From assembly GCF_021134715.1 (NCBI RefSeq), contig NC_060028.1:332501-396500 (forward strand): DNA of 64,000 nucleotides, given 5' to 3'. Shown here one piece after another: positions 3,882-52,479 of the stretch. The translations under genes were made by a program, and so were the position numbers. Under the pieces are notes generated by a model. It saw only the letters and a list, made by a program, of their open reading frames with translations, was not told the DNA's origin and did no database searches. Numbering within the stretch: position 1 is the stretch's first letter; each line of letters starts with the position of its first letter. Source of the DNA: Daphnia pulex. Lineage: Eukaryota; Arthropoda; Branchiopoda; Diplostraca; Daphniidae.

Positions 3882-6550
3882 TTAAATAGTCGGAGGTGTG
3901 GCGATTGCGTGTTGATCCCGACCGGATGATCGGAAGAGCTGGAACACGCTAGGCAGTGGCTTGACAAAATGGTGATCGTGACTGGCGCAGTGGGGACACG
4001 ACAAATCGCGACTGTACTGCGAAAAGTTTTGAAACCTTTGCTCCGGCTGCACCACTAATCCGTTGCACTGATTACACTGGAGGTGCGAAAAATCAAACAA
4101 AGGAAATCATTAAAATTAATACAATTACAAATTATTTGCGAAATAATTATAATGTAATGAGTAATTACAATTTAATTAATCGAAGAATAAAAAATAAAAT
4201 TGAACATGAAACAAAACTGAATCAAAATTAATTTAATTACAATTAAATTAGAAATTGTGGCTTTTAATACATTTTTCAAGTGCAATTAAATTTAAAAATG
4301 ATTTTAAAATAAATATGAAAAAACTGAATTAAAATTAATTTAATTACAATTAAATTAAAAATGGCGGATATTAATAATTTCTCAAGTGCAATTAAATTTT
4401 AAAAAAGGGACTCACCCTGAGGCGTTCTGGACAACACGGAGTGCCAGCAAATACGTCGTAAGAGTACAGTGTGCCGAGAATAAACGAGCCGCCGTTCCAC
4501 GGCGTCCGGCACGACCGGCATCTCAACGTGCACGTCCAACCCTCCAGACACGACTGCAAAACACACCGACAAATAGATCGTATGAATTATTATATTTCGT
4601 GTGTGTGTCTCGGGTTGAACGTTAAGTCAAAATGGCTAGAAATCACCACTCACCATGCACACGGCGCTCAAATATTGTTGACGTCCTTCCGAAGTCACCT
4701 GTTTAAATATATTAAAATAAATCAAAATTAAAACCCCCAAATTGTCAATTGAATGTCCGTGAGAGAAAACTGGTTCAAAGCGGATTGGCGGAAAAAAAAA
4801 ACCTTGGGCTACGCAACAAACCAAATCCGCGCCATTACTACACGTGCCGACTACTATCGTTCAGATCGATATCCAGTTTTTTTCAAGGTCACATTGAACA
4901 CTACCTGTGTATGTCTAGCCAGGACGATAAATATTTGCAAAAAGTAAAAAAAAAATTGACGTAATATTCTTACGGGAATGCAGGCCTTGGAGTACTGCTT
5001 TGGAGCCAGGAAGAAGGTGCCGTCAATGAGCGGATACCTGTCGTAGATTTGCATGGCGTTCTGGCAGACGACGCAAAATGTCTTGGACATTTTCGCCGTG
5101 GCCAAATTAGACAAAATGAAACAACGAATGTCATCATTCCCGTAGCTGCCCTCGTCTTCCATCTGTTATTTTTTTAAATAAAATAAAAACCAACATTTTA
5201 AATTAGAAATGTTGCACCTATTTAATTTGCATCTATTTAATGATAAATAATTGAATTCTTTACTATTTTTCGTCTTCCATCTTTTTTAAAAAATCAACAT
5301 AGTAAATGTTGATTCAGCAGTTTGTTCTTATCATTTAACTATTTATATTTATTAAAATCCCAGTTCATTCACTTGGTATCAATTTCGAACTTTGCCCATA
5401 GGCGATAACCTTTTGAGTAAACGCGAAAATAAAAGATGGAAAAATTTCTGAAATATTTTTCCAGCCGAAAGATGGGAAGCAGGTAACGTTGCCATGGCGA
5501 CCGTCTCCACGTGCAGCCGGTTATCTGCTTTCCCCCCTCAACACACATATGACCTTGATACACAAAGAGAAGAACCACTCCTCCTGCCTATTACGACCTA
5601 GAGTAGTAGGGGACTTACTTTAATGTGATAAGAGTTGAGCTTGTGGCGTGGTAACGCATTGAATGAACTAAAGTTGGCCCGATGGACAAACAGGCCACTG
5701 TTTCCCGATCCTCGCCTGATAACAAAATGTGTCCAAAATATTTAATTCATATTCATTTAATAAAACGTGAAATTAAGAATTTTACCTTTCCCGATCGTTG
5801 GAAGTTCGTTTATTCTTGTTATTGCTGAGAACAAAGACGGGAGCGGAAGAGGCTCCGGCTGAAGAAGAAGATGAAGAGTTGACGGCTTCAGGTGGTGAAC
5901 TGGAGCCGGAAGATGAAGTCGTCGATCCGGTAGACGACAGACTATTGGCCCGGTGACGAATTTGATTGTTCATCATCATTTGGGCTGCACTACTACTACT
6001 GGGTTTAACATTAACGGCTTGTTGCTGTTGCTGTGGGCCGACCTTAACTATTGTTGTTGCCGATTTACGCCGTTGTTGTTTATTCTTTTGCTCATTTTCG
6101 CCAACAACAGCTGCTGCTACTTCCAACGGTTTCTTGGGCTGCCATTCGCAATCTTTGCGCAAATGGCCACGTCCGCACAGACACCCGCAGGCCTAACACA
6201 CCAAACACAATCAACTATACAGTTTCAATTTAATTTGAAATGAAATTAAATTTTACCTTGAAGGCCAAATCGTATCCTTTTTTGGTCCACAGATTTTGAC
6301 TTCGTTGACGCTCGGACCAACTACGGGCGCGGCCGCAACTACGCAAATAGTGCAGGACCGAGGCCTCCCACTGATCGAAGCACTGGCGATGCATCAGGCC
6401 GCTGGTCGGGCAATGCTCGTTGTTACACAACACCTTAACAATTTCACCACCATCTTCATTACTGCTGCCTTCAGATGATGTTATTCCGTCGACGATCGTC
6501 ATGCAGCCGGCCGGTGTGCAACATTCTCCATTTTGAATGTTGTTGGGCAT
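3882..6550 (-). CDS. hdc: Headcase protein (HECA family)
   Basis: Seven exons (6550-6257, 6192-5786, 5715-5619, 5162-4974, 4698-4654, 4553-4416, 4076-3882) join in phase to about 454 aa. Headcase is a cytoplasmic, zinc-finger-like regulator of imaginal and branching cells in flies and a candidate tumour suppressor (HECA) in humans. The N-terminal domain shows CCTPAGC, VLCNNEHCP, MHRQCFDQWE and RSWSERQRSQNLWTKKGYDLAFK, followed by ACGCLCGRGHLRKDCEWQP. A low-complexity Ser-rich middle follows, then the C-terminal Cys-rich domain with FNALPRHKLNSYHIK, GNDDIRCFILSNLA, YDRYPLIDGTFFL, SYDVFAGTPCC and CNQCNGLVVQPEQRF. The ATG at 6550 (MPNNIQNG) is used; a longer in-frame reading would need TTG. Both domains lie in one uninterrupted frame, with no internal stop needing readthrough as reported for fly hdc. 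Confidence 0.95.
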
Positions 6551-6562
6551 TTTTTCTTCCAA

Positions 6563-7924
6563 GATACTTTTTCAAAAGATATTCAACAATTGTAACTAAT
6601 TCAACATTAACAACACGATGATTGTCAGTGATCTGCGCATGATCACCAACAAAAACAAAATTTTTTCAAAAGAAAAAAGGTGGAAGAGGGGGGGATATTA
6701 AATTGTTTCCAGTGTCTGTGGCGTGTGGCGTTGTTGACTCGACAGCCGACCGACAGAGACTGAAGAACATGCGACTCATCACGTTCGCCATCATAGTATA
6801 ACTTGTCCTTCTCGCCACGCCGTCTGGCGGAATTCTCCGACAACCTATTTTTTAAATAATTCTTTTTATTTCTCTCGAGAAATTTCGATGAATTTGAATG
6901 TCTAAATTCTATTGAATTTATTTGACGATTTTTTAATTTAAAATTAAATTTGAGATGCTGAAAAACGTGTTGTCACGACACAAAGAAAATGGGAACCGAC
7001 AGGAAATGGCGAAAAGAAACAAAAGTTTCAGCATGTCCAGACGTTCTATTCTTTTATTACGGCATTATTAATATTATCCCTGAGAGATTTTTAAAATTCT
7101 TATTTTAAAAAGCCGAAGGCTTACCGCCTTTTAAGGGTGAGAGATTTGAAGAAACAAAAGTTCCGACAGCGCTCCAAATAGTCTTAACTGTGAGAGGTCC
7201 CTGGGGAATTGGGGCAATTCGTGATTGGTCGAAGTGGTTTTCGGGACCGTGACACGTTCGTGCTGCTCCGATCGCGACGCGACTAATCCCATTCGATGTA
7301 GAATGACTTTTAACACAGGTAATGACTAAATTTTTTAAGTATTAACGAAATTAACGAGAGATTGGGAGCAAAAAGGGGAAAAAAAGGGGAAACTTCTAAA
7401 ATATAGGAAAAAAATGTCTTCTAAAATTAGAGGATGCAACCACCTCTAATTGAAAGATGAACCTATCATTTAACGGAAAAGACTAAATTTGCATTACGTT
7501 ATTTGTGGTTCGCGAGATATTTGACCAAGAAAAAGACACACAGATTGACTTTCAGTTGATTGTGTGCTGACTAGCAGACGACGTTAATTTGCAACAGCCA
7601 GTCTGCTTGTGGAATGTGGCATGGCCTACTGTGGGTATTTTAATTTGATCGTTTGAATGTTTGTGATTGATTTCATCTTGTGAAGCACTATGTTTATATT
7701 TCAAATTTTAACTATTGCAGCATTATAATAAGGAAAGAAAAACATGCCTATTGTGTCACAACTGATGGTTCCTTTACCTATCAAATCTGAACCACATTGG
7801 CAGATGGTTCACATGTAGGTGCTGAATCAACTGGAAAACGTTCAAAAAAAGGGAATTGAGAGTATGTGTTCATTTTTTTCGCTTATCTTTCTGTGTGATG
7901 AACACTAATCAACAAAATTATTTG
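6563..7924. other. Region upstream of headcase
   Basis: AT-rich, with frequent poly-A and poly-T. The short open frames on the minus strand (around 6643-6843 and 7131-7316) could belong to 5' untranslated exons of headcase, but nothing in them is recognisable. Confidence 0.4.
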
Positions 7925-16004: not shown

Positions 16005-16186
16005 TTGATTTTGACGTTAAATTTCAACAAATCACTTTTGATGGTGATGAGCAAATTTATCGTTGAATAATAAAATTATTTCTCAAAATTGATTATCTAA
16101 AAGTGAATATTGGGTTAACGTGGAACATGGTTGAAAGACATGACTGCTGTTAGATCTTTCATATTTAATTAGATTATGTGGTTTCG

Positions 16187-16500
16187 TAGGGCGATTTCTG
16201 AACGCATCCGGATCCTTCCGGAATTACCGAAGGAGTTTCCCATCAGGGAAGGGTGTTTGTTCTCTGACTATACTAAGGGTATTTCACCTGAGAGAGCCGG
16301 TCTTTAGCAAACCTAACTCCGAGATTAGGGGGGACAGAACACAGCCGGATTCCATCAGGTTGCGCAAGCCAATAATCATTTGAATTATTAATGAAGTGGA
16401 TGGAAGACGGGATTACCGTCTGATAAGAGATTGATATCCACGTTATCAAGACCGTGTTGACATGATCACAATAATTTTTAGGTAATTGCATAAATTGTCT
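16187..16500 (-). repeat. Dispersed SINE-like repeat, fragment A
   Basis: Starts with GTAGGGCGATTTCTGAACGC and CCGGATCCTTCCGGAATTACCG. The same block is found at 23940, 25604, 33866 and, inverted, at 53035. The rest is truncated and continues with ACCGTCTGATAAGAGATTGAT and TTATCAAGACCGTGTTGACA, shared with the copy at 33.8-34.56 kb. The tRNA-like head is missing here. Strand follows the head in complete copies. Confidence 0.6.
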
Positions 16501-17290: not shown

Positions 17291-17344
17291 TAATTCAAAT
17301 TAGACAACCCTTTAACGCTCCGTCAGTGCTGTACCGCCTGTAAC

Positions 17345-17385
17345 TACAAATAGACGACAAACACAGAAAACTGGCGATAGTCAAC
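17345..17385 (+). promoter_or_regulatory. Putative core promoter of four-module gene A
   Basis: TACAAATA at 17345-17352 and an initiator-like GATAGTCAAC about 30 bp downstream are kept at the same spacing before paralogue B (27554-27590). The surrounding non-coding sequence has diverged. Confidence 0.4.
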
Positions 17386-17448
17386 TCTTTGGTACCCGCA
17401 CGAAAAGTTGGTCTGATTGAACGGTAGAACTATAGAACCTTAGGCATA

Positions 17449-20400
17449 ATGGATATTACGTACGATCCCAGAATTTTAATTTGTATTCTCTTGCTGTTTC
17501 CATTGACCTTTATTACCAAAATCACTAGTGATCCCATTCGAATCCATCACCGTCCATCCGAAGGATCATTAACATTATCTACCAAAGTTATCGACAATCC
17601 TTGGAAAAAGCAACTGGGAAAGATATCAACACCTCATCAATTAAAAGTGCGGAAATCAAGTGTAGACAAAATCTTACCTCCGTTGGAAAGTTCGATCGTT
17701 ATTCCATCATCCGAAAGCAAATTCAAAACTCTACCACAGAAACTGTGGCAGAGTTTATTTAAGAATTTACAAGTAGCGACAACTAACACGGAATGCACCT
17801 GCACTGATCCCAACCCGCAAAAAGAAATATTTGGACGCGTTTGCTCTACGACTTGCTTGACATCGGAGACATTGTGTTATGGCCAGACTTGTACCCGAAC
17901 AACGACATTTTCGGCTCTTTATTCTCTCTTTACTGGATCACAAATTGTAGAACAAACGACAACAGATGTTTCATTTGTAAGTACCATCCAGAGGGTACAA
18001 ATTGATGAATTGGATTGTGAATTGCTCGAAAGCAAATGCATCCTTTCAACCGCATTAACGCAGGCCAAAGTAACGGGCGCAATAGGTGCAGGGGCTGCCA
18101 TCGCTTTGTCGGTTGGTATTGCAGTGGACAAGAAAACGAAACCAAATGAAGAGGAAGAAGAAGAAGAGGAATATGATTATCCGGAAATAGAATATTCGCA
18201 GAAGATTGGTCGAAAATCCAGAAATTATTTCGAAAATTTGAAAAGTTCGATGGTTCCAATCGACGAGCAATTCGATGCGATGCCACGTGGTTTGTTGGGT
18301 CTTGCACTGAGAAGAGTAGCACAACCAGCAGAAGGAACATGTAGCTGTAGCGTCAGCATTCCGTTATTCTTCATTCAAGAATGTTCAACGACTTGCCTAT
18401 CATCCAAACGACTTTGCGGCAATCATTTTTGCACCCAGACATCCGTTTTCAATGCCTTTTTGTATCCAACCGGAAGCAATAGCGAACTAACAACACAAAC
18501 ATTTCTGTCCGTCAATAACAAAGATTGTGAGAAGCTGAGAGCCGATTGCATCGCATCGTCTGCCATCGGCGCAGTGGCCAAGATTGGCGCTGCAACTGGA
18601 CTGGCCGCTGCGGCTTTATCGTCTGGAATGGGAGCAGCCGCTAAACTTTTCATAACCGCAAGTAATAAAAGTAACGGAACAGCGAAGGAAAATGAACGTT
18701 TGCATTTTAATTATACCAGACGCACAGTAAAGAAATTAAAGTATTTTGATTCTCTGCTGAATTCAAATTCTTTGTTTGATGAAATTGGACCATTTTTAGA
18801 AAGTTCAATCGTCGAAGAAAAGAATTTGAAAAAGTTCTCCATAATTGATCTGTTTGGTCTATTCGGTGGTCAACAAGGGGTTACAAGTGTGACAACTAAA
18901 TGTACTTGCGATGATCCAAGTCCATCAGCGGGGACGATAGGACGAGCTTGTAGCACAACTTGCAGAAACATCGAGACGTTGTGTTCCGGCTCTCGATCCT
19001 GTTACCGGACCACCACTTTCATGGCTGTTTATTCGCTTTTTACTGGTTCAAAGTTCGATTTTCTACTTGGTTCATCATATTCTATAATCGATTCAACCAA
19101 CAAAAAGTATTCTACCATTTTAAAAAGGACATACTCACAAATTGACGAAGAAAGATGTGAAATACTCGAAAGCCAATGCAATGCAGTTGATACTTTGGCC
19201 AAGGCAAGACAACCGGCGGCAGATGTGGCTGCCTTGTCGGTCGGATTGGCCGCTGGAGCTGTTGGAATTGCCATAATTAAGGCTAAACATAGCCAAACTG
19301 TGGACAATGCAACATACGAAGAATATGGCGATTACCCCTACGTACGAAGTCTTTATGCCAGACGAAAACGAAGCAAGAGAATGTCATTTACTCAAGAAAG
19401 AAATCAGAGTGAAATTGAAACAAAATTGAGCGACGTTCCGACAATTGAATTCGACCAACACCCTTCGAATGGCCCACCTAGCATTGAAAGTTCGATGGAA
19501 GAAATATTCAATGTCCCGACATTTTTAAAATTATCCGGGAGACAAGCGGCTGTATGCGCGTGTAATATTTTAGGGGTTTTTTCCGACTCTTGTTTAACAA
19601 CCTGCTTGGCATCTGAGCAATCGTGTGCTCTTGGTGGTTGCAGTTGTACTCGAACTTCCGTTTACGAGGCTAGCAAATATTTAACAGGTTCAACAACATC
19701 CTATGATTTTTTTGCAAATGCATATATAACTATAGGGGTTTATGGCACTTATTCATTTCTGTCTGTCGATAACAAAGATTGCGAAAAGTTACTAGTCGAT
19801 TGCAGCATCGCCTCGTCGACTATTTTGGCGGCGGGAAGAGTTGCCGCAATCGCCGTTGGAGTTGGCGGAGGTTTAGCGGCCGGAATTGCAGTCGCAGCTG
19901 TGGTCGTTGCCAGCAACAACCAGACAAATAACATCAACAACAATACTGAAAAACAACAATCGGCCCAAAACTCTAATCAGACCCCCGCAAATAATTTACC
20001 GATTCCAGTTGTCGGATTAAGTTTTCCGGATGACGGAAGTGGTGACAGTTCCATTCGATTTCCTGACGGAAGTAGTCATCCTATTTTCAGCAGAGGACCT
20101 TGTAATCAAACTCATTGGGTTACAGTCAACCCCATTTCATTACAGGTCAGTTGAGTATTTCTAATATTTGTTCAAAGTTCACATGAATTTTTAAATAAAT
20201 TTATAACAGGGTGGATGCACTTTGCGTCTCTGTGAGGAGGAACGAGTTTTCGTTGGCCGGACTGGCCTCTGCCATGACGTCAACGATCCACTTGAATGTC
20301 AAGGAGGCCGACGTCTTTATTACACGGCCTATGGAGATCCAATATGCGATTGTCCCATCGGACAATATCCGTTTCCAGACAGCACCAAAGACGATTGCGT

Positions 20401-21217
20401 TTCATTATTCTCTCGAGGTAATCAGAATACTTTTCTATGAGAATTTATTTTTCTAATATTCAATTTATTTTTAGGTTCCTGCCCAAATCGCCAAGTGTTG
20501 GTTATAACTGAGGACGGTCGACTGAATTGCGAACCCCTCGAATGTCAGTTGATTAATGGAGGAGATGACGGACGATTCCAGCAATTAGTTCCGGATGAGA
20601 AAGGAACTTGTTTCGCTCTGGGTTCACGCGGACCTTGTTCATCCACTCAATTGTTGGGTTACGACATATTCAAACGGCGATTGCAGTGTGTTGTCGATCC
20701 CTTCTCTCCCGAATCTTCTCCATCTCAACAAAACGAACTGGTCGATGTTGCAGAAAACAAGGAATTGTTTTCACAGGATTACATCAGTGAGCGGATTAAT
20801 TGGATCGAGTATTTAATCACCCTCAGTTTAATGCAAAGAAGCAAATTAATGGAGCCAATTGAGAGACAAGACACTGCAGGAATTCTTCAATTACCCAGTT
20901 CATCACCCGATTCTCTTCTTCAACCGTGTCGATCTGGAGCTCGGAGTGACAATAATTTCAAATGCGCCAATCCTTTAGTGTAAGTTGTATCTTCTTGAAT
21001 TTAATTAGGTTTATTTTGTTTCATTTAAATTTTTCATGGATTTAGGTCTGATTCCGGTTCTGGAGGGTCTCTTCCTCCGTTGCCTCCATTAGTCACTTGT
21101 CCGGCTGACAGTTTCTTGACAGCATCGGGTTCGTGCGTTGATGACAGACGAGCGGCGAAATGCGGACCTTCGACTCGTTTTAACGAAGCAACTGGGCAAT
21201 GTCGATCTTTATTTTAG
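17449..21217 (+). CDS. Large secreted four-module Cys-rich protein, paralogue A
   Basis: Four exons (17449-20145, 20210-20417, 20475-20979, 21046-21217) give about 1193 aa. A signal peptide (ILICILLLFPLTFITKITS) is followed by four related modules starting near Cys116, Cys298, Cys485 and Cys703. Each has CxC, then CSTTC or CLTTC, LCxxxxCxRT, a Phe/Tyr-rich stretch with TGS, and a pair DCExLxxxC or RCEILESQC. Each ends in an Ala/Gly-rich hydrophobic segment (about 205-226, 374-404, 590-612, 793-823). Modules 1 and 3 resemble each other, as do 2 and 4. Linkers carry a Glu run, basic sites (RRKRSKR at 638-644) and repeated ESSI/ESSM/KSSM boxes. The last ~340 aa are a Cys-rich region with GTCFALGSRGPCSSTQLLGY, resembling the arthropod DUF4789 type. 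Function is unknown; extracellular or membrane location is inferred. Confidence 0.85.
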
Positions 21218-21378
21218 TCGGTTTTATTATTTATTCTGATTCGTACTCACGGAGGTGGTGGGAGTTAATTTATTTTTATATTCTCTGATGAGGATTGTTT
21301 AATTGGATGAACGGAATGTGTTGATTACTCGGTTGTGGTGTCCCTGGATCCTTTTTCACACAATCAACAAATCATGGA

Positions 21379-21384
21379 AATAAA
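21379..21384 (+). terminator. Polyadenylation signal of paralogue A
   Basis: AATAAA about 160 bp downstream of the stop codon at 21217. Confidence 0.6.
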
Positions 21385-21523
21385 AGGATGAGAAATCAAA
21401 CTTTCATTTCCATTCTTCATTTTTATTTATCAAGAAATTTAAACTAATTTAATTTGTTTAAAGTTTCCTCTGGCACAACGTAAATCGCCAACTGGTAGCC
21501 CACATTTGTAAAAGATGTCGTGA

Positions 21524-23250
21524 CGTAATACTGGCGAATGAAGGGTATCCTAAAATTGGGGGTAGGGGGGAGGAAATAATCCAAAATGGCTGCCGTTTCT
21601 TTTCCTTTCGTCTTTGTCAGTAGTCGTCTGTCGTGTGGACTCCGAGCAAAATTCGGAAAATTCAAGTGGTTTTCGATACAAAGCTTCAAATACTTTTCGA
21701 TCTGTTGAAGGTCAAATCGTGAGTTGTTATCGTAATTATTATCTGTGTAACAGTCAGTTTGATATAGGTTTTGTTTGTGCTTCCATAGGTGGAAATCCAT
21801 TCTATTCTACAATTTTTTCTGATAAAATTTGATGTACATCCGATACAGATTCAACACGTGTGTTGAATCTTGAAAGATCCAAAGATAGTTAAGATACCCT
21901 TTTTTATCAGTAGTTCTCTTTTGCATCTTATTGGCTGTAACAGTGTGCTTTTATTATTTTACAACTAGTGTCAGTAAATCACCTGATCGAGAGCACACTA
22001 GGCCCTAATCTTGTAGAAAAAGGTGCACAGTGAAAGATTGGACATATTTTCACTTGTTTATTTCAGACAATATGCAGACACTGGAATGATACAGAATGAC
22101 ATTATTTCACTTGATTGGATTTAACTTATTTAATATTGTATTTGCATGTGTAGGTACTTGTTTCCAGTGAAGAAGAGAAGCCGACCCAAAACTTACTAGT
22201 ACTACAACCTATGTCCAACTCTGATCCCAAACTATTTCTGTCGACTCAAACAGCTGGTAGCTGCCATCATGTAGTGTTGTTTCTATCTGGTAAGACTGCA
22301 CTAATACAGTTTTTTTTTAATATTTGCATTATTATCTTGTGAATGAATTAATCTTTTATTTTGGTTTAAACAGATTCAAGTATTGTTATTATACACTTCA
22401 AATCTGGACTTTGGAAGACGCTTGGCATGGTCCTAAATTTTTCACTGGATCAAAATTGGATAAGGAAAGTTTTCGACATGTGAACATCACTTCCCTCAGG
22501 TCTGTGAGCATGTGCTTCCTATTGCTTGAGAAATTATTTCCTTAAGAAAATTTCCTTAAATTAAGAGGTCGCTTGTGAAACTCAACGATATTTTATTCAA
22601 TTTACGTGTTGCGAAATCTTCCTGAATTTTACCGATTTTGTACCAATTAAAAAGTTTTTTATTGCCCATTTACACTAAAATAACTGTAAAAACCACACCG
22701 GATACTCAAACACCGCACAGTAATTTTATCCTTCATAATAGCTTTAGGCAGATTTATTTGAGAATACAGCAGTAGGGGGGAGTTGTTTAGACAACTGCTA
22801 GTTGCTGAGAAGACAGTTAACGGGCGTGTAAAGTGAACCAGAAAGCCATTCATACTCAGTTATTGCTTATTCTTTCACGTAGTATACCACATTTCACCAC
22901 TTGAATGACTTTGATCATTATTTCTTAACTTTTCAACCACATTATTGAACCTCTTTCGATCGGAATTTTTCTGTTCAGGTTATAGTTTGTTTTCGAGTAC
23001 TAATGCGCTTGATTTTTTACCGCATAACTTAATACCGGTGTTAATAATTTTCATTGAGGTAATTTTTGGAAATGGATGGAAAAAATATTTGCAGTTAAAT
23101 CTTGGACATATTTTTTCCCCACTGTTTCTGAAAGAAATAATTTGATTATTTTTCCATTTCTTTTTTGTTGTTGTCTGTGTTTGAATTTTAAAATACTGTT
23201 AGTCACAGTGATCAGATATTTCCCCCCGATTCCCTGCAAAATGGTAGGCT
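21524..23250. repeat. Downstream duplicated block, copy 1
   Basis: 21524-21610 (GTAATACTGGCGAATGAAGG, AAAATGGCTGCCGTTTCTTT) is repeated at 31647-31733 after paralogue B. A second stretch at 22657-22880 (ATTGCCCATTTACAC, CACCGGATACTCAAACACCG, ACGGGCGTGTAAAGTGAAC) recurs at 24723-24945 and 32672-32880. No coding potential is seen, although 21.6-22.5 kb may hold decayed exons. Confidence 0.6.
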
Positions 23251-23917
23251 ACAGCAATTTTCTAGTTATTTTATTCCAAATGAAATTTGTGATTGCCCAG
23301 TTTCACAAGGTTAACTGTAATTTCATTTCGAATACTCAAATACCCCAGGTTTTTTGTTCTATTACTTACAGGAAAGATTTATTATCGAAAGCTAGTAGTA
23401 TCCTCGGTCGGCTGTTCTAGAAGACACCTGTTTGCCGCTAAAGCGGTTAACGGGCTTTTAAACTGTTATGTGGAAAAGGAAACCATTCGTACTAAAGCTA
23501 TTGCCCGTTCTTTCTCTTGCCATCTAGAATTACTTAAACGATTATTTTTTGTTTACTTCTCACGCTCGTTGTTGCACCTCTTTCAAACGGAAAGTTACTT
23601 CGAATTTGTTTGTTTTGCGAGTGATCCAGATAGATTCATTCAGTTCTTAAACTTCGCTACTCTCAAAATTTTTCGTTTAAATTTTGTGTGTGAATGATAG
23701 CTGCTCTCCAAAAATATCAATTAAACCTAGTACGTTTTTTTTAGTTTGTGTTTAAACGAATTTTAGAAGTCTGGATTATATCGGCTCTGCGCTCTGCTGT
23801 TTACTCATTCTTTGCAAAATTTCCATCTTTTAGCAGAACTTACGAGAATATATTTCGAATTAAATCAAAGTCGGTTTCCTTCGACAGCTTAACAATTTTG
23901 ATTTTTTAAAATAAGAA

Positions 23918-24410
23918 AATAACGTCTTACATTTGGCTAGTGTAGGGCGATTTCTGAACGAATCTGGATCCTTCCGGAATTACCGAAGGAATTTCGGTGG
24001 ATTTTCCCTTTGCCATCAGGGAGGGGTATTTTCACTGATTTCTCAGGGTATTTCACCTGAAATTGTTGGATTTTCTGTATTCAGGTTTGCTTGCAAACCT
24101 GACGGACCCGCCTCCGAGGACAGGGGGTCCAAGCACAATTAGATTTTCATCAGACTGTACCAAATCAACATACAGCTAGTCTGGCCGTGATTATTTTGAG
24201 ATCGCAATCTCAGTTAAATCAAGCCCCCTAGACACTCGGTAGTTTTGTGACGCAGGTTTGGGCTTTTTACACAATTTCCGTGGCGCCGCCTGATGGTTGG
24301 GTGGTAAATCAACTTTGTTCTTTTTGGGAATCGAACTCAGGCCACGATGTGTTCTGATGTTAAAGCCACGCCCTTTCCGAATCACCCACTCTGTTCACAT
24401 TAAAGTTTGT
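23918..24410 (-). mobile_element. tRNA-derived SINE-like element, copy B
   Basis: On the minus strand the head (about 24396-24326) contains an A-box-like GTGGGTGATTCGG and a B-box GAGTTCGATTCCC, the internal RNA polymerase III promoter of tRNA-derived SINEs. A ~400 bp body follows, with the shared tail ending at the CCGGAAGGATCC and CGCCCTACA blocks. Very similar to copy C at 25.58-26.07 kb. Confidence 0.6.
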
Positions 24411-24699
24411 TTTATTTGCCGCCAGAATTTTGACATGTTTGGCAGTTATTTCCGAAGTATTTTTGTTTGAAGTAAATGAAATCCAGGATATCAAAATTAA
24501 ATAAAACAATTGCACAAATTATGATCATTGTGCAATTGTGCAAAAATTTTGGGGCGATCTTGATGATTTCACTTGAAGATCGCGGTCGCAATCTCTTTTG
24601 CGATCATCCATGGACTGAAGAGTTCAGCAAACTTGGGCCTTTTTGTGGTAAACTGGTTTTCTCTTCATCCGATTTTTCAATTAAATTTCCTTCGTGTTG

Positions 24700-25575
24700 A
24701 TTTATACCAATTATTAAGTTTTTTAATTGCCCATTTACACGAAATAACTGTGAAATCACACGGGATACTCAAATACCGCACAGAAATTTCATCCTTCATA
24801 ATAGCCTTAGGTAGATTTATTTGAGAAATCAACAGTCCGGTTGTTCTAGACCACTGGTAGTTGTAAAGAAGACAGTTAACGGGCGTGTAAAGTGAAACAG
24901 AAATCCATTCATACTCAGTTATTGCTTATTCTTTCACGTAGTTTTTACCACATTTTACGACTCGAATTTCCTTTGACGATTATTTTTTATCTTTCAACCA
25001 CATTGTTGAACCTCTTTCGATCGGAACTTTCTGTTCGGGTTACTTTTGTTTTCGAGTGAACCAATTCGCTTGGTTTTTGACCGAAAACGCACTTTTTCTA
25101 AATTTTATTGAAGTCATTTTTTATAAATGGGAGGAAGAATTTTCAGTTAAATCTTGGAAATTTTGTTTCTGTGTCTGCAAGAGATTATTTGGTTATATTC
25201 TTTCCTTTTTCGTGTTTTAATTTGAAAATATTGTCAGTCACGACAAAATAGTAGGCTGTAACTACGGGCGTTAGGAGTTTATTGTGGGACGAAGACTATA
25301 ATTAAACATAAATTTCAACTTGACGTACTCGCCAGCATCAATGCGTGTGATTAGCGGCTATAATTTTTTTTTAAACAAAGAATAGAAAATCAAAAGAATG
25401 AAACTCAGTTTAATATTAGTGCATTGACTCGACTTTTAGCAGAACTTACTTGCCGAAATATTTTTCGAACTAAATCACAGTCTGTCTCCTTCGACAGCTC
25501 TAAACTTGAATGATAAAACTTGATTAATTGATTTAATTTAATTTGAATTAATTTTACATTTTGGATTTTAAATAA
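24700..25575. repeat. Tandem repeat unit preceding SINE copy C
   Basis: 24723-25260 repeats 22657-23200 (for example TTGAACCTCTTTCGATCGGA), and 25438-25500 repeats 23836-23890 (AGCAGAACTTAC, TCCTTCGACAGCT). With SINE copies B and C it forms two diverged, roughly 1.2-1.4 kb tandem units. No gene is seen. Confidence 0.55.
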
Positions 25576-26075
25576 GAAAATAACGTCCTACATTTGGCTG
25601 TTGTAGGGCGATTTCTGAACGCATCCGGATCCTTCCGGAATTACCGATGGGTAGATCGGTGGATTTTCCCTTTGCCATCAGGGAAGGGTATTCACTGTAT
25701 CTCAGGGTATTGCACTTGAGCCTGTTGATTTTCTATTCAGATTTGCAAGCAAACCTGAAAGGGACCCACCTCCGAGGACAGGGGATCTAAATACATTCCG
25801 ACTTCCATCGGATGTACCAAATCAACATACAGCTAGTCTGGACTAGATTACTACGAGATTATCCCCTCCTCAATCTCAGTTTCATCAAGCCCCCTAGACT
25901 CTCGGTCATTTTGTGAGGTAGATTTGCAGGGTTTTCAATTTCAGTGGCGCCGTCTGATGGATGGATGGTGAACCAACCATGTTATCTTTGAGAGTCGAAC
26001 TCAGGCCACGATGTGGTCTGATGATAGAGACACGCTCTATCCGACTCACCCACTCTGTTCACATTAAAATTTGTT
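25575..26075 (-). mobile_element. tRNA-derived SINE-like element, copy C
   Basis: The head on the minus strand (26060-25989) reads GTGGGTGAGTCGG (A-box-like) and GAGTTCGACTC (B box). Body and tail align with copy B along their length. The tail includes GCGATTTCTGAACGCATCCG at 25608. Confidence 0.6.
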
Positions 26076-26211
26076 TTATTTGCCGCCATAATTTTGGCAT
26101 GTGACATCTAATTTAAAAATCTTGGCAGATATTATTTGCCCACGGTAAAGATGTTTTTAGGCTAAGTTAGGTTCAATAATTGCGTCATGAAATTTAATGG
26201 AGTATTTCTTT

Positions 26212-27540
26212 TCTTTTCTTAGACACGATTTTCTAACGGAAACATTTCGTTTCTAGAGTCGCCTGCTAATGCAAAATGCGGAACTATTGTACGAGAAGGT
26301 ATAAAATGAATTAAATGGCTGCCGACCGTGCATTTTGAGCTAATAACTATATCTTTTGTCGGTTATTTATCTTTTCTAGGAACTAAACGACTCCACAACG
26401 AACGAGTTGAACAAACTTACGTGCACAGCAACTGAATGGACCTAGTTCGTTTTCATTAGATCAGCGTATAGCAGTGGGCAAAAGTAAAGTAAGTGGTCTT
26501 ATTCATTTCTCGTAAATGACGGCGGATGCCTAAGAAAGCGGCCGACCCTGGCGGTGCAGTTGCAAGGAATTTAATTTTCTCGTTTTAATTGGGGCAGCTA
26601 TAAATTTACGATGCCACATTTTTTCCAACTCCCTATTCCTTTGAAACTCTATTCGAGATTTATGGGCCGTCTTCTTCCGGTTTTACTCGTAACTTCTCAA
26701 CGTAAAAATGGTCTAGGTCTATTTTTAGCCAACGTGATATTTTGATATTCTTTCAAAGAAAATAGGACATCGCAAATAGCAGTAGAGGTGGGGCGAGTCT
26801 TTGTTCATCCCTCCAGTCAAATCACAGCATAGTGCATAGAAACAAAGCTATGATTACTAGAAAAAAGTGGTGAGACAGAAAATGCCGTGTGCCATAAAGC
26901 GGACGTTGTCCACATCGTTTCTTTTTAAAATTAAACAAAAGGTAACAGGGTGTAACAGGGGTGGCGCGTATGGTCATTTTTGTTGCAGCATACTTCCGAA
27001 ACCGTAGACTCCCGAGGGCACACTCACCTGCTGGTGGCGCGGAGTGATTTACGCCAACAATAGGGGTGCACGCACGCATTTAAAAAAAAAACAGTTTGGC
27101 CTTCTTATTTTAACGAGAAATGGGAATGGTTTGTAGCCTATACGAGATGTTTACTCCAGCAAGTTACGTAAAAAAAAAGAAAAAACTCATTGAGGTTGAC
27201 CATTTCAAACAGATTTCAATATGACTACCCATCGGTTCGATAGTAAAACTAAAATTACAACACCTCTACATACAGACCTTGTTGCGTAATTTTAGTTTTA
27301 CTGTTTTAGCGCATTAAATACGAATGCTTTTTCTGCTATAGGATAAGATCGTTTGGGCTGGATGGACTAACACATTTTTTTTCTATTTGATGTACTGTAG
27401 TCATGTGTTTTACTCGTCCAATTTTCTTTTTCGACTGATAATAACTTTAATAAGGCATCCCGAAAAAAAAGGCCTTAAGGGTGAGACAGCATAAGTAATG
27501 GCTCGCAGGCATAAGGTATCTTAAACGCGTCGTAACTACT
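26212..27540. other. Upstream flank of paralogue B with a duplicated 90 bp block
   Basis: 26219-26305 (AGACACGATTTTCTAACGGA, AACATTTCGTTTCTA) matches 16667-16765 upstream of paralogue A, which helps define the segmental duplication. The rest is AT-rich without a recognisable gene. Confidence 0.5.
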
Positions 27541-27553
27541 GTATACCGCCAAC

Positions 27554-27590
27554 TACAAATAGGCGCCAAACAAGGACAACTTGCGATAGT
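27554..27590 (+). promoter_or_regulatory. Putative core promoter of four-module gene B
   Basis: TACAAATA at 27554-27561 and GATAGTCATC near 27585, matching the block before paralogue A. Confidence 0.4.
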
Positions 27591-27685
27591 CATCTGTCTG
27601 TAACCGACACGAAGAGTTGAGCGGAGATTGCGTAACGTGTTGGATTCCATTTCAGTCGAACGGTAGAACTAGAGTCTTAGGCAAA

Positions 27686-30600
27686 ATGGATATCACCTGC
27701 TACCCCAGACTTTTGATTTGTATTCTGTTGCTGTTTCCATTGACCTTTATTACCAAAATCACTAGTGAACCTTTTCAGAGCGATCACCGTCCATCCGAAA
27801 GATCATTAACCCTTGAAAAATTTTCATGGAAACAGCGACTAGGAAAGGTATTCTCGCATAATTGGAGAAAAAATGGGAAATTGAGTGTAGACAAAGTGTT
27901 GCCTCCATTAGAAAGTTCGATTGCCCCACCATCCGGAAGCGAATTGAAAATCTTCCCACCGAAACTGTGGCTGAGTTTACTCAATAATCTTGCCGTAGAG
28001 ATAACTAACACGGGACAAACGGGATGCACTTGCTCAGATCCCAATCCGCAAGGAGTAACAATAGGACGCATTTGCTCCACGACTTGCTTGACGTCGGAGA
28101 CATTGTGTTATGGCCAGACTTGTACCCGAACAACGACTTTTTCGGCTCTTTATTTCCTTTTTACTGGAGAACAATTTCTAGGACAAGAGACATTTCCCAT
28201 ATCATTTGTAAGTACCACCCAGAAGATAGAAATTGATGAATTAAATTGTGAATTACTCGAAAGCAATTGCATCGCAAAATCCGCATCGACGCAAGCAAAA
28301 GTAATCGGCGCATTAGGGACAGGGGGCGCCATCGCCTTGTCGGTTGGGATTTCAAAGGACAAGAAGAGTAAACCAAATGAAGAAGAGGAAGAAGAAGAGG
28401 AAGAATATGACGAATATTATCAAGAACCAGAATATTCAAAAAAGTTTGGTCGGAAATCCAAAAGTTATTTCGAAAATTTGAAAAGTTCGATGGTTCCAAT
28501 CGATGAGCAATTCGATGCGATGCCCCGTAGTTTGTTTGGTTTTGCACTGAGAAGAGTAGCACAACCAGCAGAAGGAACATGCAGCTGTAGCGTCAGCATT
28601 CCGTTATTCTTCGTTCAAGAATGTACAACCACTTGCCTGTCATCCAAACAACTTTGCGGCAATCATTTTTGTACCCGCACATCCGTTTTCAATGCATTTT
28701 TGTATCCGACCGGAAGCAATAGCGAACTAACAACACAAACATTTCTGTCCGTCAATAACAAAGATTGTGAGAAGTTGAGAGCTGATTGCATCGCATCGTC
28801 CGCTATCGTCGCTGTAGCCAAGATCGGTGCCGCTGCTGGACTGGCCGCTGCGGCTTTATCGTCTGGAATGGGAGCAGCCGCTAAACTTTTCATAACCGCT
28901 AATTATATAAATGATAGAACTAAAAATGAAGATGAGCGTTTGCATCAAACTTATACAGGACGCACAGCAAAGAGATTAAAATATTTTGATTCCCAGATGA
29001 ATTCAAAATCTTACTTTGATGAAATCGAATCATTCTTGGAAAGTTCAATCGTTGAAGAAAAGAATTTGAAAAGATTTCCCAAAAATAATCTCTTTAGTTT
29101 ATTTAGTGGACGACAAGATGAGGGTATCACTGGTTGTACTTGCGATGATCCAAGTCCATCAGCGGAGACGATAGGACGAGCTTGTAGCACAACTTGTACA
29201 AATAGCGAGACGTTGTGTTCCGGCTCTCGATCCTGCTACCGAACCACCACTTTCATGGCCGTTTATTCCTTTTTATCTGGTTCACGGTTCTATTGTTCTT
29301 ATAATGGTATAGAGGATTCACAACTTCTTTCCACCATTTTAACCAGAACTTTTTCGCAAATCGACGAAGAAAGATGTGAAATACTCGAGAGCCAATGCAA
29401 TGCAGTTGATACTTTGGCCAAGGCAAGGCAACCGGCGGCAGATGTGGCTGCCTTGTCGGTCGGATTGGCCGCTGGAGCTGTTGGAATTGCCATAATTAAG
29501 GCTAAACATAGCCAAGCTATGGACAGTGCAACATACGAAGAATATGGTAATTATCCATACGTGCAAGATCCGTATGCCAGGCGAAAACGAAGAAAGAGAA
29601 TGTCATTTACCAAAGAAAGAAAACAGAATGAATTTGAAACAAAATTAAGCGACAATCAGACAATTGAATTCGAACAACACCCTTCGCTGACCCCACCTAG
29701 CATTGAAAGTTCTATGGAAGAAATATTAAATGTCCCGACATTTTTAAAATTATCCGGGAGACAAGCGGCTGTATGCGCGTGTAATATTTTAGGGGTTTTT
29801 TCCGACTCTTGTTTAACAACCTGCTTGGCATCTGAGCAACCATGTGCTGGTGGTGGTTGCAGTTACTGCACTCGAACTTCCGTTTTCGAAGCCAGCCAAT
29901 ATTTAATAGGTCCCGATTCATTGGACTGGGGCACTTTTTCAGTACTGTCAGTCAATAACAAAGATTGTGAAAAGTTACTAGTCGATTGCAGCGTCGCCTC
30001 GTCGACTATTTTGGCGGCTGGAAGAGTGGCCGCAATTGGTGCTGGAGTTGGCGGAGGTGTAGCGGCCGGAATTGCAGTGGCAGCTGTGGTCGTCGCCAAT
30101 GACAACCAACAAAACAACAATGACAACAACAACAATAATAATAACAATAATAATCAACAATTGGCACAAATCTCTAATCAAACCCCCGCAAATAATTTAC
30201 CGATTCCAGTTGTCGGATTAAGTTTTCCGGATGACGGAAGTGGTGACAGTTCCATTCGATTTCCTGACGGAAGTAGTCATCCTATTTTCAGCAGAGGACC
30301 TTGTAATCAAACTCAGTGGGTTACAGTCAACCCCATTTCATTACAGGTCAGTTGAGTATTTCTAATATTTGTTCAAAGTTCAAATGAATTTTTCGTCTTT
30401 TAATTACAGGGTGGATGCACTTTGCGTCTCTGTGAGGAAGAAAGAGTTTTCGTTGGCCGGACTGGCCTCTGCCATGACGTCAACGATCCACTTGAATGTC
30501 AAGGAGGTCGACGTCTTTATTACACGGCCTATGGAGATCCGATATGCGATTGTCCCATCGGACAATATCCGTTTCCCGACAGCACTAAAGACGATTGCGT

Positions 30601-31420
30601 TTCATTATTCTCTCAAGGTAATTTCTAATTCTATTGAATCCATTTTGCCTTAATTACAATATAAATTGATTTTTAGGTTCCTGCCCAAATCGTCAAGTGT
30701 TGGTTATAACTGAGGACGGTCGACTGAGTTGCGAACCCCTTGAATGTCAGTCGATTAATGGAGGAGATGACGGACGATTCCAGCAGTTGATTCCGGATGA
30801 GAAAGGAACTTGTTTCGCTTTGGGTTCACGCGGACCTTGTTCTTCCACTCAATTGTTGGGTTACGACATATTCAAACGGCAATTGCAGTGTGTTGTCGAT
30901 CCCTTCTCTCCCGAATCTTCTTCATCTCAACAAAATGAATTGGTCCAAGGAGCAGAAAACAAGGAATTGTATTCGCAGGATTACATCAGTGAACGAATTG
31001 AGTGGATTGAATATTTAATCAGCATCGGTTTATTGCAAAAAAGCAAATTAATGGAACCAATCGAGAGACAAGACAATGCTGGAATTCTTCAATTGCCCAG
31101 TTCCTTACCTGATTCACTCCTTCATCCTTGTCGCACTGGAACGCGACCAGGCAATAATTTCAAATGCGCCAATCCTTTAGTGTAAGTTATATCTTCTTAG
31201 AGTTAATTAAGTTTATTCTGTTTCATCATCAATTTTTTTTTATGGATTCAGGTCTGGTTCCGGTGGAGGGACACGTCCTCCGGTGCGTCCGTTAGTTTCT
31301 TGCCCAGCTGGCACTTTCTTGACGGCCTCGGGCTCGTGTGTTGGTGACAGTCGAGCGGCGAAATGTGGACCTTCGACTCGTTTTAACGAAGCAACTGGAC
31401 AATGCCGACCTTTATTTTGA
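27686..31420 (+). CDS. Large secreted four-module Cys-rich protein, paralogue B
   Basis: Exons 27686-30346, 30410-30617, 30677-31181 and 31252-31420 give about 1180 aa with the same exon phases as paralogue A. The ATG at 27686 (MDITCYPRLLICILLLFPLT) is preferred because it aligns with A and starts the signal peptide; 23 further in-frame codons upstream do not begin with ATG. All four modules, their Cys patterns and hydrophobic Ala/Gly segments are kept. Differences cluster in linkers: a longer Glu run near residue 235, an Asn run near 810-820, and RRKRRKR in place of RRKRSKR. Module 2, module 4 and the C-terminal exons are nearly identical to A, while module 1 and the linkers differ more. Function is unknown. 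Confidence 0.85.
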
Positions 31421-31504: not shown

Positions 31505-31510
31505 AATAAA
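31505..31510 (+). terminator. Polyadenylation signal of paralogue B
   Basis: AATAAA 85 bp downstream of the stop codon at 31420. Confidence 0.6.
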
Positions 31511-31646: not shown

Positions 31647-32880
31647 CGTAATACTGTCGAAGGAAGGGTGCCCTAAATTGCGGGACTATGGGGACGGAAT
31701 AATTCAAGATGGCCGCCATTTCTTTTTCCTTTATCACCTCACGTTCTCAGGCTTCTGTTAGGTGTTAAGTTAAGTTAAGTTAAGAGTCTGCGACTCGCCG
31801 ACTCTAGACTTGAAATCAAATTTGATTCTGTCGAAGGTGTTATTGTAAGTTAAAAATGAACTGTGATTAGTATTGTACGTCGTCAGTTTGTCATTGTTAC
31901 TGTGTACATGTGTGTGCATATTTGATTAGTGATAACCAGTCTTGGAGTTCAGTTGAATGGTTGTAGCATGGTTGTAGAGTAAAAAATTCTTGTGAAAGAA
32001 AGTTCACATAGATGTTTATACATGTTTGCTAATTATTTGGTTTGTTTCTTTTGTTTCTAGAAGCTTTGCAGATACTGCGGAAGGATCCAGAAAGCCTGCA
32101 GGTTGTTTGTATGTTACTTTGATTTTGGTCTGGTTATTTTACTTAGTTTCATTTCATTAAGCACATTTGTTTGCATGTTCTTGTGCAGGTAGGATTTACA
32201 TTTGTTCTCTGGTGAAGAAGGATTGTCAAGATAGTGTGCTCTACCCGAACGTTGTTAGCTGCCATCATGTTGGTTTCTATCTATAATTGTCTGTAGACTG
32301 CTTATTATAAAGTTGTTTTGAGGAAATGCCTTACTGCCTTGTGAAAGAATTAATCTAGTTTTTTTGTTTTTACAGATTAAATGAGGATACCACACACTGA
32401 GTTGACTTCGCTGTAGCTATGCAACTAGGCTTGGCAGTGTCTTCATCGGTTTAAATTTGGCAAAACAAATTCATGTCATATTTGAGCATCTATTCTGTAT
32501 TCTCCAAGGTTAGTGAACATATGTTTCTCTTTGGTTTAAAATTTTCGTGCGATAATATCGCCTTATACTTTTTCTCTTTTAATTAAGAATATTCTTTTGT
32601 ATAACTGTGTTGCGGATTCTCCCCGATTTTTACCGAACCTATAATAATTTTATTCAGAATCAAGGTTTGATCGCCCATTAACATAACACGAGGATAACTG
32701 TGGTTGAAGCCACACCGCATACTCAAATAGCTCGCAGTAATTTTGCCCTTCATTAGCTTCAGTCAGATTTTATTTGAGAAGCTAGTAGCAGCGTCAGCGG
32801 CTCTAGACGACTCCTAATTGCTAAGAAGACAGTTAATGGGCGTGTATAGTGAACAAGATAACGATTCATGCTCAGTTTTA
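31647..32880. repeat. Downstream duplicated block, copy 2
   Basis: 31647-31733 and 32672-32880 correspond to 21524-21610 and 22657-22880 after paralogue A, in the same order and orientation. A short (GTTAA)n run lies at 31760-31783. No gene is seen. Confidence 0.6.
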
Positions 32881-32991
32881 CTACTGAAATTGTTATTCGG
32901 ACGACTATTTCTTAACTTTTTATCCACGTTGCTGGTAACTTAAAATAACACTCAGTTATTTGTGCATTCACCCGATGCAGCAAAGTTATTT

Positions 32992-33030
32992 ATGTAAGGT
33001 ACGTCAACGTGTCCGTGATGTACCTTACAT
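32992..33030. other. Short hairpin (inverted repeat)
   Basis: ATGTAAGGTACGTCA and TGATGTACCTTACAT form a 15 bp stem with one mismatch around a 9 nt loop. It is too short on its own for a microRNA precursor; it may be a cruciform or repeat edge. Confidence 0.4.
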
Positions 33031-33839
33031 GTGAATTCGAAAAGTTTATTCAAAAATGCCTTAGGTTATTCTTTTCGTTCAAGTTTTCTTGTAACAAACC
33101 TAGAAAGAAATTTAATCGACGAAGTTGAAAGATTTTGAAGTAAGGAAGGAGCAATATCGCTTGCAGCTACTTTATTTCTTCCCGTATAACTGCAGGGATA
33201 TTAATCAACCGTATCAATTGGGCGTTACCCGCAAGGCGTTTATTGGGTAGAACCCTGCAGCAGTGTTATTTATTTCACCATTTCTTACAATCAAGCGTCG
33301 TGAAAATCATGTAAAAATGCCCACTTAAATATGGAGCGCATGGCAACCTGTAGGTTCTTAACAAAACGGTGATGAATCCTCTTTATTTAAGAATTCCCTA
33401 CCATTGCTCTTTTGAAGTAGCTGTATAATTGGCATTAGTAGGAAACTTTTGGGCTCTATCGGGGGCCAGTCTTGATCCTTTACGGTTCTTGAGATCAGTC
33501 GTCTATGGCGGCAAGATTAAAAAATGGAAGACAAACTAGAACTCGGTTAAAGCTACTCCATTAAAATTATTATTACCGCAAAGTTGACAAGTTTCGTCGT
33601 TCTGTCAGGATCAGTTGTGGGAAATTAAAAAAATTTACCACCCAATATTTCTTATATTTCCATTATTTACGGTTGACCAACGCTGATCCGAATTCCGAAC
33701 GTGTAAGGCTGTAAGTAATTATGTAGCCTATAGTTGATAAGAAAAGGCTGTATTACAAGATGTTAATTTTTCAATTTATTATTTATTATTTCGAAAAATA
33801 AATATGCTCCACCCAGGTGGAGTTTGCATTATGTGATGA

Positions 33840-34560
33840 CAATAACGTTCTACATTTGGCTTATGTAGGGCGATTTCTGTAGACATACCCGGATCCTTCC
33901 GGATTACCGAATGGGTTTCGGTGGATTTTCCCCTTGCCATCAGGGATGGGCGTTGTCACTGTTCTCAAGGACTGTCACTTTCGCTTGAGTCTGTCGGATT
34001 TTACAACAAGTTTGCAAGCAAACCTGAAGGTCCCACCGCCGAGTCCATGAGACGAAACACAAACAATATATTTCAACTACTTGTACCAAACCAACACCAG
34101 TGTGCAGACTGTGATTACTTGAGATTATCCTCCCGAATCTCCAAGTGAATCTACAGACCCCTGACTCTCGGTACTAATATTATGCAGATTTGAGCCTTTT
34201 AAACAGGTGGAAACGGGATTAATTCAACGTCTATGCTAGCCTCTATTTGTTTTTGGCCGGGACATCCAGGGGAATCCTTCTGTAAATTTAAGTAGTTAAT
34301 TTTCCGCTCAACGTTCATTGTTCAATTGTTTGATTTAATTTTGATTGGATTTAATTATTAATGAAGTGCATGGAATACCGGATTATCGTCCAATAGAGAT
34401 TGATACCCTGGCGGCAGATGATGGCGACGACTCATCCTTTGGAGTTTGCATCACTTTGGAGATGGCACGCTAAGTGAGAATCCGTTTGAAAGTTTAACCC
34501 ACGTTATTTTAAGACCATGTTGACATGATCACAGTAATATCCAGGCAATTTCCTAATTGA
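33840..34560 (-). mobile_element. Dispersed repeat, copy D (long form)
   Basis: The left part (33866 on) shares the GCGATTTCTG and GGATCCTTCCGG block with copies A-C. From 34180 it continues with GAGCCTTTTAAACAGGTGG, CAGGGGAATCCTTCTGTAAA, GATTGATACCCTGGCGGCAG and AAGACCATGTTGACATGATC. That extension is shared with fragment A and the inverted copy at 52.48-53.05 kb, but not with B and C. Confidence 0.6.
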
Positions 34561-42077: not shown

Positions 42078-42480
42078 GTATGTGGTTGGTTCCTGCTGAA
42101 TCAGAAACGGAACAAGAACTCCCTTGGCTCTGTCGAGGGAAGTGTTTGAATGATGTTTAAAACAAGAAAATATCTTAGGAATTGTTGATGCAAAAGAAAT
42201 ACCGTCACAGAAAAAGTCAACTGCCAATTATATATGGCGCTGTTAGATTTATTGCTGGCAGCTGATTGAAAGTCGATGTCCAAACTGTTGGTTGTTGTGG
42301 CGACTGCGGTAGGAATTACGTTATTCCGGTTATTGGAAGTATATAAATTTGATCATTGTAAACCTGAGAAGTCAAAACAAATTTGGATCACATCAACGAA
42401 CACTGAAATTCGATTTCTTTTCCTAACTTCAACATAACCGATGTTTGTCTGAGAAACAGCCGCCATTACAAACAGCAGCG
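42078..42480 (-). pseudogene. Decayed CUB-domain gene
   Basis: On the minus strand the pieces parallel the living gene at 44.4-46.0 kb. An exon at about 42365-42203 reads VYNDQIYILPITGI, then after a +2 nt shift VIPTAVATTTNSLDIDFQ and NSAIYNWQLTFSVT. The linker exon (42128-42080) reads SQGSSCSVSDSAGT, almost the same as SQGSSCSVFNP at 45060. A fragment FNITDVCL lies near 42420-42450. The frameshift and missing partners indicate a pseudogene. Confidence 0.65.
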
Positions 42481-42885: not shown

Positions 42886-42967
42886 CGACGTGGATGAGAT
42901 TCGAACTCATGCGTGCAGAGCACAACAGATTAGCAGTCTGTCGCCTTAACCACTCGGCCACCACGTC
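42886..42967 (-). tRNA. tRNA-Ser (anticodon GCT)
   Basis: The acceptor stem GACGTGG pairs perfectly with CCACGTC, followed by discriminator G. The D-arm is GGCCGAGTGGTTAAGGC (A box TGGCCGAGTGG). The anticodon arm CAGACTGCTAATCTG has GCT at the anticodon position. A variable arm typical of serine tRNAs and the T-arm GAGTTCGAATCTC (B box) follow. No intron. Length is 82 nt including the discriminator. Confidence 0.96.
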
Positions 42968-51879: not shown

Positions 51880-52240
51880 GTGCTCCCCACGAAGGTGTAC
51901 CCCAGACCGCTATCAGATACAAGATCTACGATCCTTGAGGGGGATACACCCCGTGAGGCGTCGTCCACGAATGCAATGGTGTTACTTGGTGCTTAATACC
52001 GTCCGTATTACCCATGAACCGTGCAGTGTCGTCTTGGCTGCCCCACAGAGCCCGTATCCGACTCTAATCTCCGTTGCAACCACATCAGTACTGGGGCGCC
52101 ACCTGACGGTTTAATGGTGAACTACCCATGTTCCTTTGGGGAGTCGAACTCGGGCCTCAATGTGCTCTGATGGTTAAGACACGGCCCGACTCGCACGCCT
52201 CCTATCCGACTCACCCACTCTGCCCCGTTGTCATTTGTTT
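51880..52240 (-). mobile_element. tRNA-derived SINE-like element, copy E (different body)
   Basis: The head on the minus strand (52227-52139) contains GTGGGTGAGTCGG and GAGTTCGACTCCC, as in copies B and C. The 250 bp body (GTACCCC, GGGGGATACACCCC, CCGTCCGTATTACCC) differs from theirs, so it is a related family with a shared head. Confidence 0.5.
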
Positions 52241-52479
52241 TAATTTGTCGCCAGGATTTTGACTTGTGACATCTAATTAGACATTTGGCATGCGGTTATT
52301 TCGGAAGGATTTTTGTTTGACTTTTACAATTAAATTTAATCATAATTAATATTAAACAATTAAATAAATAATGAACATTGTGGAAAAAAAAATTAAAAGA
52401 TTTTTTAAAAGATTACCCGGATGTTTTTCTTCGTGTGATTTACCCGACAAAAAAAAGGTCCAGTAGATTAGAATAGACA

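What the first reader, a model, noticed from the sequence alone, without database searches (positions are those of the whole stretch)
17449..31420. Undescribed four-module secreted protein family
Each 1.2 kDa-scale codon block aside, the protein shows a clear internal period: four modules with CxC, C(S/L)TTC, (E/K)xLCxxxxC, RTxxF, TGS and DCExLxxxC, each closed by an Ala/Gly-rich hydrophobic stretch, arranged A-B-A'-B'. It ends in a separate Cys-rich region resembling DUF4789. I know of no named protein with this layout, and two paralogues sit side by side.
Basis: partly seen in the sequence, partly recalled or inferred. Interest (0 to 1): 0.8.

Follow-up and report, generated by a model that had tools for sequence, protein, structure and literature searches.

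The report
Twin secreted cysteine-module repeat genes
Two neighbouring animal genes each encode a large, probably secreted protein made of four related eight-cysteine units followed by a known but uncharacterised DUF4789 domain; the units match no family convincingly in the libraries searched, and their function is still a guess.

Summary
Two intact four-exon + strand genes (A 17449-21217, 1193 aa; B 27686-31420, 1180 aa) encode paralogues identical at 951 of 1168 aligned codons. Each has a hydrophobic, signal-like N terminus, four homologous modules in A-B-A'-B' order, and a C-terminal region that is DUF4789 itself (PF16033, E 9e-21 and 1.5e-22). All 8 modules share one eight-cysteine plan and run into an Ala/Gly-rich hydrophobic stretch. 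In A, all 6 module pairs beat all of 500 shuffles (B not tested). Both genes look constrained (dN/dS 0.38 overall, 0.15 around DUF4789). The modules reach no curated cut-off in Pfam or NCBIfam, and only weak PHROGs and PDB hits; three viral-contig scans and one prokaryote scan found no relative. One strong furin-like site is kept between modules 3 and 4. Structure predictions were poor (mean pLDDT 37 and 47). No animal proteome could be searched, so 'undescribed' holds only for these libraries. Most likely an extracellular structural protein cut once into two chains; that role is inferred from composition alone. Modest interest.

The parts
17449..21217 (+). Gene A, 4 exons (17449-20145, 20210-20417, 20475-20979, 21046-21217), 1193 aa
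   Evidence: open frame, GT-AG introns; AATAAA at 21379
27686..31420 (+). Gene B, 4 exons (27686-30346, 30410-30617, 30677-31181, 31252-31420), 1180 aa
   Evidence: open frame, GT-AG introns; AATAAA at 31505
17449..17529 (+). A: hydrophobic N terminus, probable signal peptide (end approximate)
   Evidence: hydropathy; below zero on the recalled insertion scale, unlike the four tails tested with it; no signal-peptide predictor was available
27686..27766 (+). B: hydrophobic N terminus, probable signal peptide (end approximate)
17770..18144 (+). A module M1 (type A)
18322..18678 (+). A module M2 (type B)
18880..19302 (+). A module M3 (type A)
19534..19926 (+). A module M4 (type B), one extra Cys
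28001..28375 (+). B module M1 (type A)
28562..28918 (+). B module M2 (type B)
29114..29521 (+). B module M3 (type A), one extra Cys
29753..30112 (+). B module M4 (type B), one extra Cys
19360..19380 (+). A: RRKRSKR, furin-like site between M3 and M4
29579..29599 (+). B: RRKRRKR, the same site
20294..20638 (+). A: DUF4789 best stretch (residues 928-1023; crosses the second intron)
   Evidence: PF16033 E 9e-21; DNA coordinates worked out from the exon table
30494..30840 (+). B: DUF4789 best stretch (residues 916-1011; crosses the second intron)
   Evidence: PF16033 E 1.5e-22; DNA coordinates worked out from the exon table

Best explanation
A secreted, heavily disulphide-bonded extracellular structural protein (matrix, cuticle, gut-lining or egg-coat type) of an arthropod, perhaps a crustacean. 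Shown: two intact, constrained paralogous genes; four homologous 8-Cys modules, each followed by a hydrophobic Ala/Gly stretch; a C-terminal DUF4789 domain. Inferred: entry into the secretory pathway; disulphides within modules; one cut by a furin-like protease between M3 and M4, giving an M1-M2-M3 chain and an M4-DUF4789 chain; the Ala/Gly stretches act as packing or self-association segments rather than membrane spans, so that the chains assemble into an insoluble layer. The host and the structural role are the weakest steps.
Against: No expression, tissue or protein evidence. No fold: both models are poor. The structural role rests on composition alone. The Ala/Gly stretches reach Kyte-Doolittle means of 1.54-2.24 over 19 residues, and two of them give weak hits to phage holins, which are membrane proteins (E 0.16 and 0.27), so membrane spans are not ruled out. 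The linkers other than M3/M4 have only weak basic sites.
Confidence: 0.4

Rival explanations
1. Secreted defence or lumen-active precursor: the 8-Cys modules with a hydrophobic tail bind or disturb membranes, or inhibit proteases, of microbes or parasites, and are released by cutting.
For: Cys-rich repeats, hydrophobic tails, a basic cleavage site, tandem duplication, and fast change in the loop between the sixth and seventh Cys of M1 and M4 (dN/dS 1.34 and 0.95).
Against: Overall purifying selection (0.38); the loop values rest on 28 and 20 codons, untested for significance, and the M3 loop gives 0.36; only one strong cleavage site, so the four modules are not freed one by one; no match above cut-off to a known peptide or inhibitor family in Pfam.
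Confidence: 0.2
2. Multi-pass membrane protein: the four Ala/Gly stretches are transmembrane helices.
For: Kyte-Doolittle maxima 1.54-2.24 over 19 residues in 8 of 8 tails; weak holin hits to two tail regions of A, E 0.16 and 0.27.
Against: With a span after each module, M2 and M4, which share the Cys plan, would lie in the cytosol, and so would the furin-like site; all 8 tails are above zero on the recalled insertion scale, though that sum ignores position in the membrane.
Confidence: 0.15
3. The second half of each module is a remote relative of the Notch heterodimerisation (NOD/NODP) domain: a strand, a short turn with a Cys, then a helix with C-x6-C.
For: The module profile hits Notch1 chain 3i08_B, E 0.41; NODP hits M2 of A alone, E 0.16, and M2 of B, E 4.1, at the same place; both poor models put a strand and then a helix there.
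Against: None of these values is significant and they are not independent; among the 4 modules of A scanned alone only M2 gave the hit; no Notch chain is among the 50 rows shown of the 317 fold matches.
Confidence: 0.07

Closest known systems
PF16033, DUF4789
   Same: The C-terminal region matches the whole 101-position profile above its cut-off in both proteins, with further partial stretches.
   Different: No stretch of the four N-terminal 8-Cys modules was reported as DUF4789. That DUF4789 is mainly an arthropod family is recalled, not tested.
Notch NOD/NODP domain (PF07684)
   Same: Local likeness around C-E-x-L-x3-C to the Notch strand, C-x6-C and helix.
   Different: Not significant (E 0.16 to 4.1); the eight-Cys plan, the repeats and the Ala/Gly tails have no Notch counterpart known to me (recalled).
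Furin-processed multi-domain matrix or egg-coat proteins (a general kind, recalled)
   Same: Signal-like N terminus, Cys-rich repeats, hydrophobic Ala/Gly stretches, basic cleavage site.
   Different: No sequence relationship was found.

Membership tests
DUF4789 (PF16033) | Profile match above Pfam's gathering score (27 bits) | tested here: met
   74.7 and 80.5 bits
DUF4789 (PF16033) | Match over the whole profile | tested here: met
   Positions 1-101 of 101 in both
Notch NODP (PF07684) | Profile match above Pfam's gathering score (25 bits) | tested here: not met
   8 bits for B, 12.5 bits for M2 of A
Any family in Pfam-A or NCBIfam, for the modules | Match above the curated cut-off within the modules | tested here: not met
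   None above cut-off; one search scanned the first-exon products, which hold all eight modules
Furin-processed secreted precursor | R-X-[KR]-R site in a linker, kept in both paralogues | tested here: met
   M3/M4 linker only
Furin-processed secreted precursor | Cleavage in the animal | not testable with these tools
   Needs protein
Multi-pass membrane protein | Segments favourable for membrane insertion | tested here: inconclusive

The most novel reading that the evidence does not exclude
The repeat is a new disulphide-stabilised domain (a short beta meander followed by a helix that runs into a membrane-active Ala/Gly tail), used in a furin-split, two-chain secreted protein that inserts into or bridges membranes or coats.
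Probability: 0.08. Interest if true: 0.6.

Novelty: new variant of a known kind. Interest (0 to 1): 0.3.

Why it matters
If the modules are a true new domain, a model built from these eight copies could annotate further secreted proteins and give a first handle on DUF4789, a name found in none of the 5.39 million held papers (its accession likewise). Otherwise it is one more lineage-restricted, duplicated secreted gene pair.

Tried and rejected
Four separately released modules: rejected, since RX[KR]R occurs only in the M3/M4 linker. An acidic, tyrosine-rich tail shared by M1 and M3: seen by eye but not clearly above chance (126 of 2000 shuffles for A and 54 of 2000 for B reach the score). The (L/I)(E/K)SS region as part of one common unit: above chance for M1/M3 and M3/M4 of A (0 and 2 of 500 shuffles), not for the other 4 pairs (37 to 211 of 500). 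Gene conversion over the whole DUF4789 part: not borne out as such, because the second intron, which lies inside it, is only 55% identical. Fold search with the better model: 317 matches at E 10 or less, none at 0.001 or less; in the 50 rows shown the TM-score by query length is 0.11 to 0.30, with phage coat proteins at the top; judged meaningless at this model quality. Relatives in viral contigs (three scans: first exon of A, module alignment, DUF4789 part of A) and GTDB genomes (one scan with the module alignment): none confirmed; these scans depend on short peptide patterns. Weak hits set aside: PDB orf22 E 0.043, NK-tumor recognition protein, DMIP11; Pfam ribosomal 60s, EED insertion E 0.011, DUF3824, DUF3915; NCBIfam TrbK_Ti E 0.44; PHROGs 37896 of unknown function, E 0.018 for A and 0.0036 for B, over the M2 tail, with no stretch passing on its own in B; PHROGs 1148 and 4506, and two holins. 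A third copy in the window: none (tblastn hits outside the two genes all have E 0.6 or more). Paper searches (searches returned no paper; some searches were seen as listings with the start of abstracts): no paper was opened and none is used as evidence.

Full report
What is there. The window looks animal: it holds genes with short GT-AG introns and exons of headcase, CUB and PH domain proteins; no whole genome is held for it. Two + strand genes lie at 17449-21217 (A) and 27686-31420 (B). Each has one long first exon of about 2.7 kb and three short exons, with introns of 57-70 nt. They encode 1193 and 1180 aa, identical at 951 of 1168 aligned codons. tblastn of both against the window found no third copy. 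That the host is an arthropod, perhaps Daphnia, is my guess from DUF4789 (recalled as an arthropod family) and gene style; no call shows it.

Modules. Eight modules (four per protein) align with 17 invariant columns, seven of them cysteines; with the upstream part included, the alignment shifts and eight cysteines are invariant among 20 columns. The plan is C-x-C-x(9-13)-C-x3-C-x6-C-x(4-5)-C-x(n)-C-x6-C in 8 of 8, with one extra cysteine in 3 of 8. Within A, all six module pairs exceed all of 500 shuffles, with the Ala/Gly tail (Z 8.8 to 39.0) and without (Z 6.2 to 35.6); pairs within B were not tested. The tree splits M1+M3 from M2+M4 (100/99) and pairs A with B for M3 (100/100) and M4 (99/99); the branches that would pair A with B for M1 and M2 are open, though A and B modules of one position are the most alike by identity there (70% for M1; 90% for M2). 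The simplest order of events is one module doubled, then the pair, then the gene.

Duplication and selection. The homology between the genes runs in one piece from 17310-21215 to 27520-31418 at 83.7% identity, with smaller matches at a like offset further downstream (21521-21608 and 22606-22861). Nei-Gojobori estimates are dS 0.283, dN 0.109, ratio 0.38 overall; over the 11 regions they run from 0.15 (residues 881-1044, DUF4789) to 0.61 (M1); three short loops give 1.34, 0.36 and 0.95. Synonymous change in residues 881-1044 is low, 12 of 120 sites against about 185 of 713 elsewhere (Fisher p 7e-5; sites treated as independent, region chosen after seeing the table). Two introns lie in that region: the first is 87% identical, the second only 55% (the third, outside it, 82%). 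So a conversion tract, if any, would cover about 20000-20400, where identity is 0.92 to 1.0 per 100 bases, and stop before the second intron (0.72 in the 20400-20499 step); coding constraint is the other reading.

Families. DUF4789 (PF16033) matches both proteins over its whole length; of three fragments of the C-terminal region of A, two match above the cut-off and one below it. The modules give no match above a cut-off in Pfam or NCBIfam (first-exon products only). PHROGs gave weak hits only (best E 0.0036, unknown function; two holins at E 0.16 and 0.27 over Ala/Gly tails of A). PDB sequences gave none for the first-exon product of A or for the C-terminal region of A, and four unconvincing ones for the module profile (E 0.043 to 1.6). 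Three scans of viral contigs and one of GTDB genomes found no relative. No animal sequence collection was open to me; this is the main limit.

Structure. AlphaFold2 with eight rows gave mean pLDDT 37.3 for M2 and 46.7 for M1 with its upstream part. In the second, block means for residues 41-130 are 50 to 70, and the model shows three strands and then a helix that leads into the Ala/Gly stretch. This is a hint, not a fold; the PDB search with it gave nothing usable.

How it probably works. The N termini are hydrophobic and signal-like. All modules carry the same cysteine plan, so I place all of them outside the cell (inference). The only RX[KR]R site, RRKRSKR in A and RRKRRKR in B, lies between M3 and M4 and would split the protein into an M1-M3 chain and an M4-DUF4789 chain. 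A matrix or coat role is inferred from composition alone.

Neighbourhood. Of the 145 stop-to-stop frames of 80 aa or more, 40 outside the two genes were scanned against Pfam. Their genes (headcase, WD40, CUB, PH, CID+RRM, all on the - strand) give no clue to the function of this pair.

Literature. DUF4789 and PF16033 are in none of the papers of the held library (one search asked for DUF4789 together with a phrase and also found none; one search found none). Three wider searches (10 of 15, 10 of 12 and 8 of 8 papers listed) were read as listings only and showed nothing on this protein.

Noticed in passing
20000-20400 against the matching part of gene B (about 30201-30600): Very high identity between A and B (0.92 to 1.0 per 100 bases, first intron 87% included), ending before the second intron (55%): a short gene-conversion tract or strong constraint.
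   Followed up: partly
17662-17700, 18214-18260, 18772-18830, 19459-19500 (and B equivalents): An (L/I)(E/K)SS motif stands before every module, S-S invariant in 8 of 8, in otherwise poorly conserved sequence.
   Followed up: partly
16186-16291, 22606-26113, 32607-34429, 52095-53076: Dispersed repeats, several copies on both strands, 67-98% alike; perhaps a transposable element.
   Followed up: no
42105-42427 -, 44398-45592 -: Repeated stretches; two frames there (44623-44967 and 45350-45592) match the CUB domain (E 3.4e-08 and 2.5e-08).
   Followed up: partly
5785-6571 -: Headcase N-terminal domain in two frames (PF15353, E 9e-39 and 0.0016).
   Followed up: no
918-1334 -: WD40 frame, best match WDR3 first propeller (E 4.2e-20, below that model's own cut-off; WD40 itself E 8.6e-14).
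   Followed up: no
60902-62636 -: RRM (E 2.2e-12) and the end of a CID domain (E 0.0005, below cut-off): looks like an SCAF4/8-type gene (name recalled).
   Followed up: no
53844-54299 -: PH domain frame (E 2.6e-06).
   Followed up: no
42886-42967 -: tRNA-Ser(gct).
   Followed up: no
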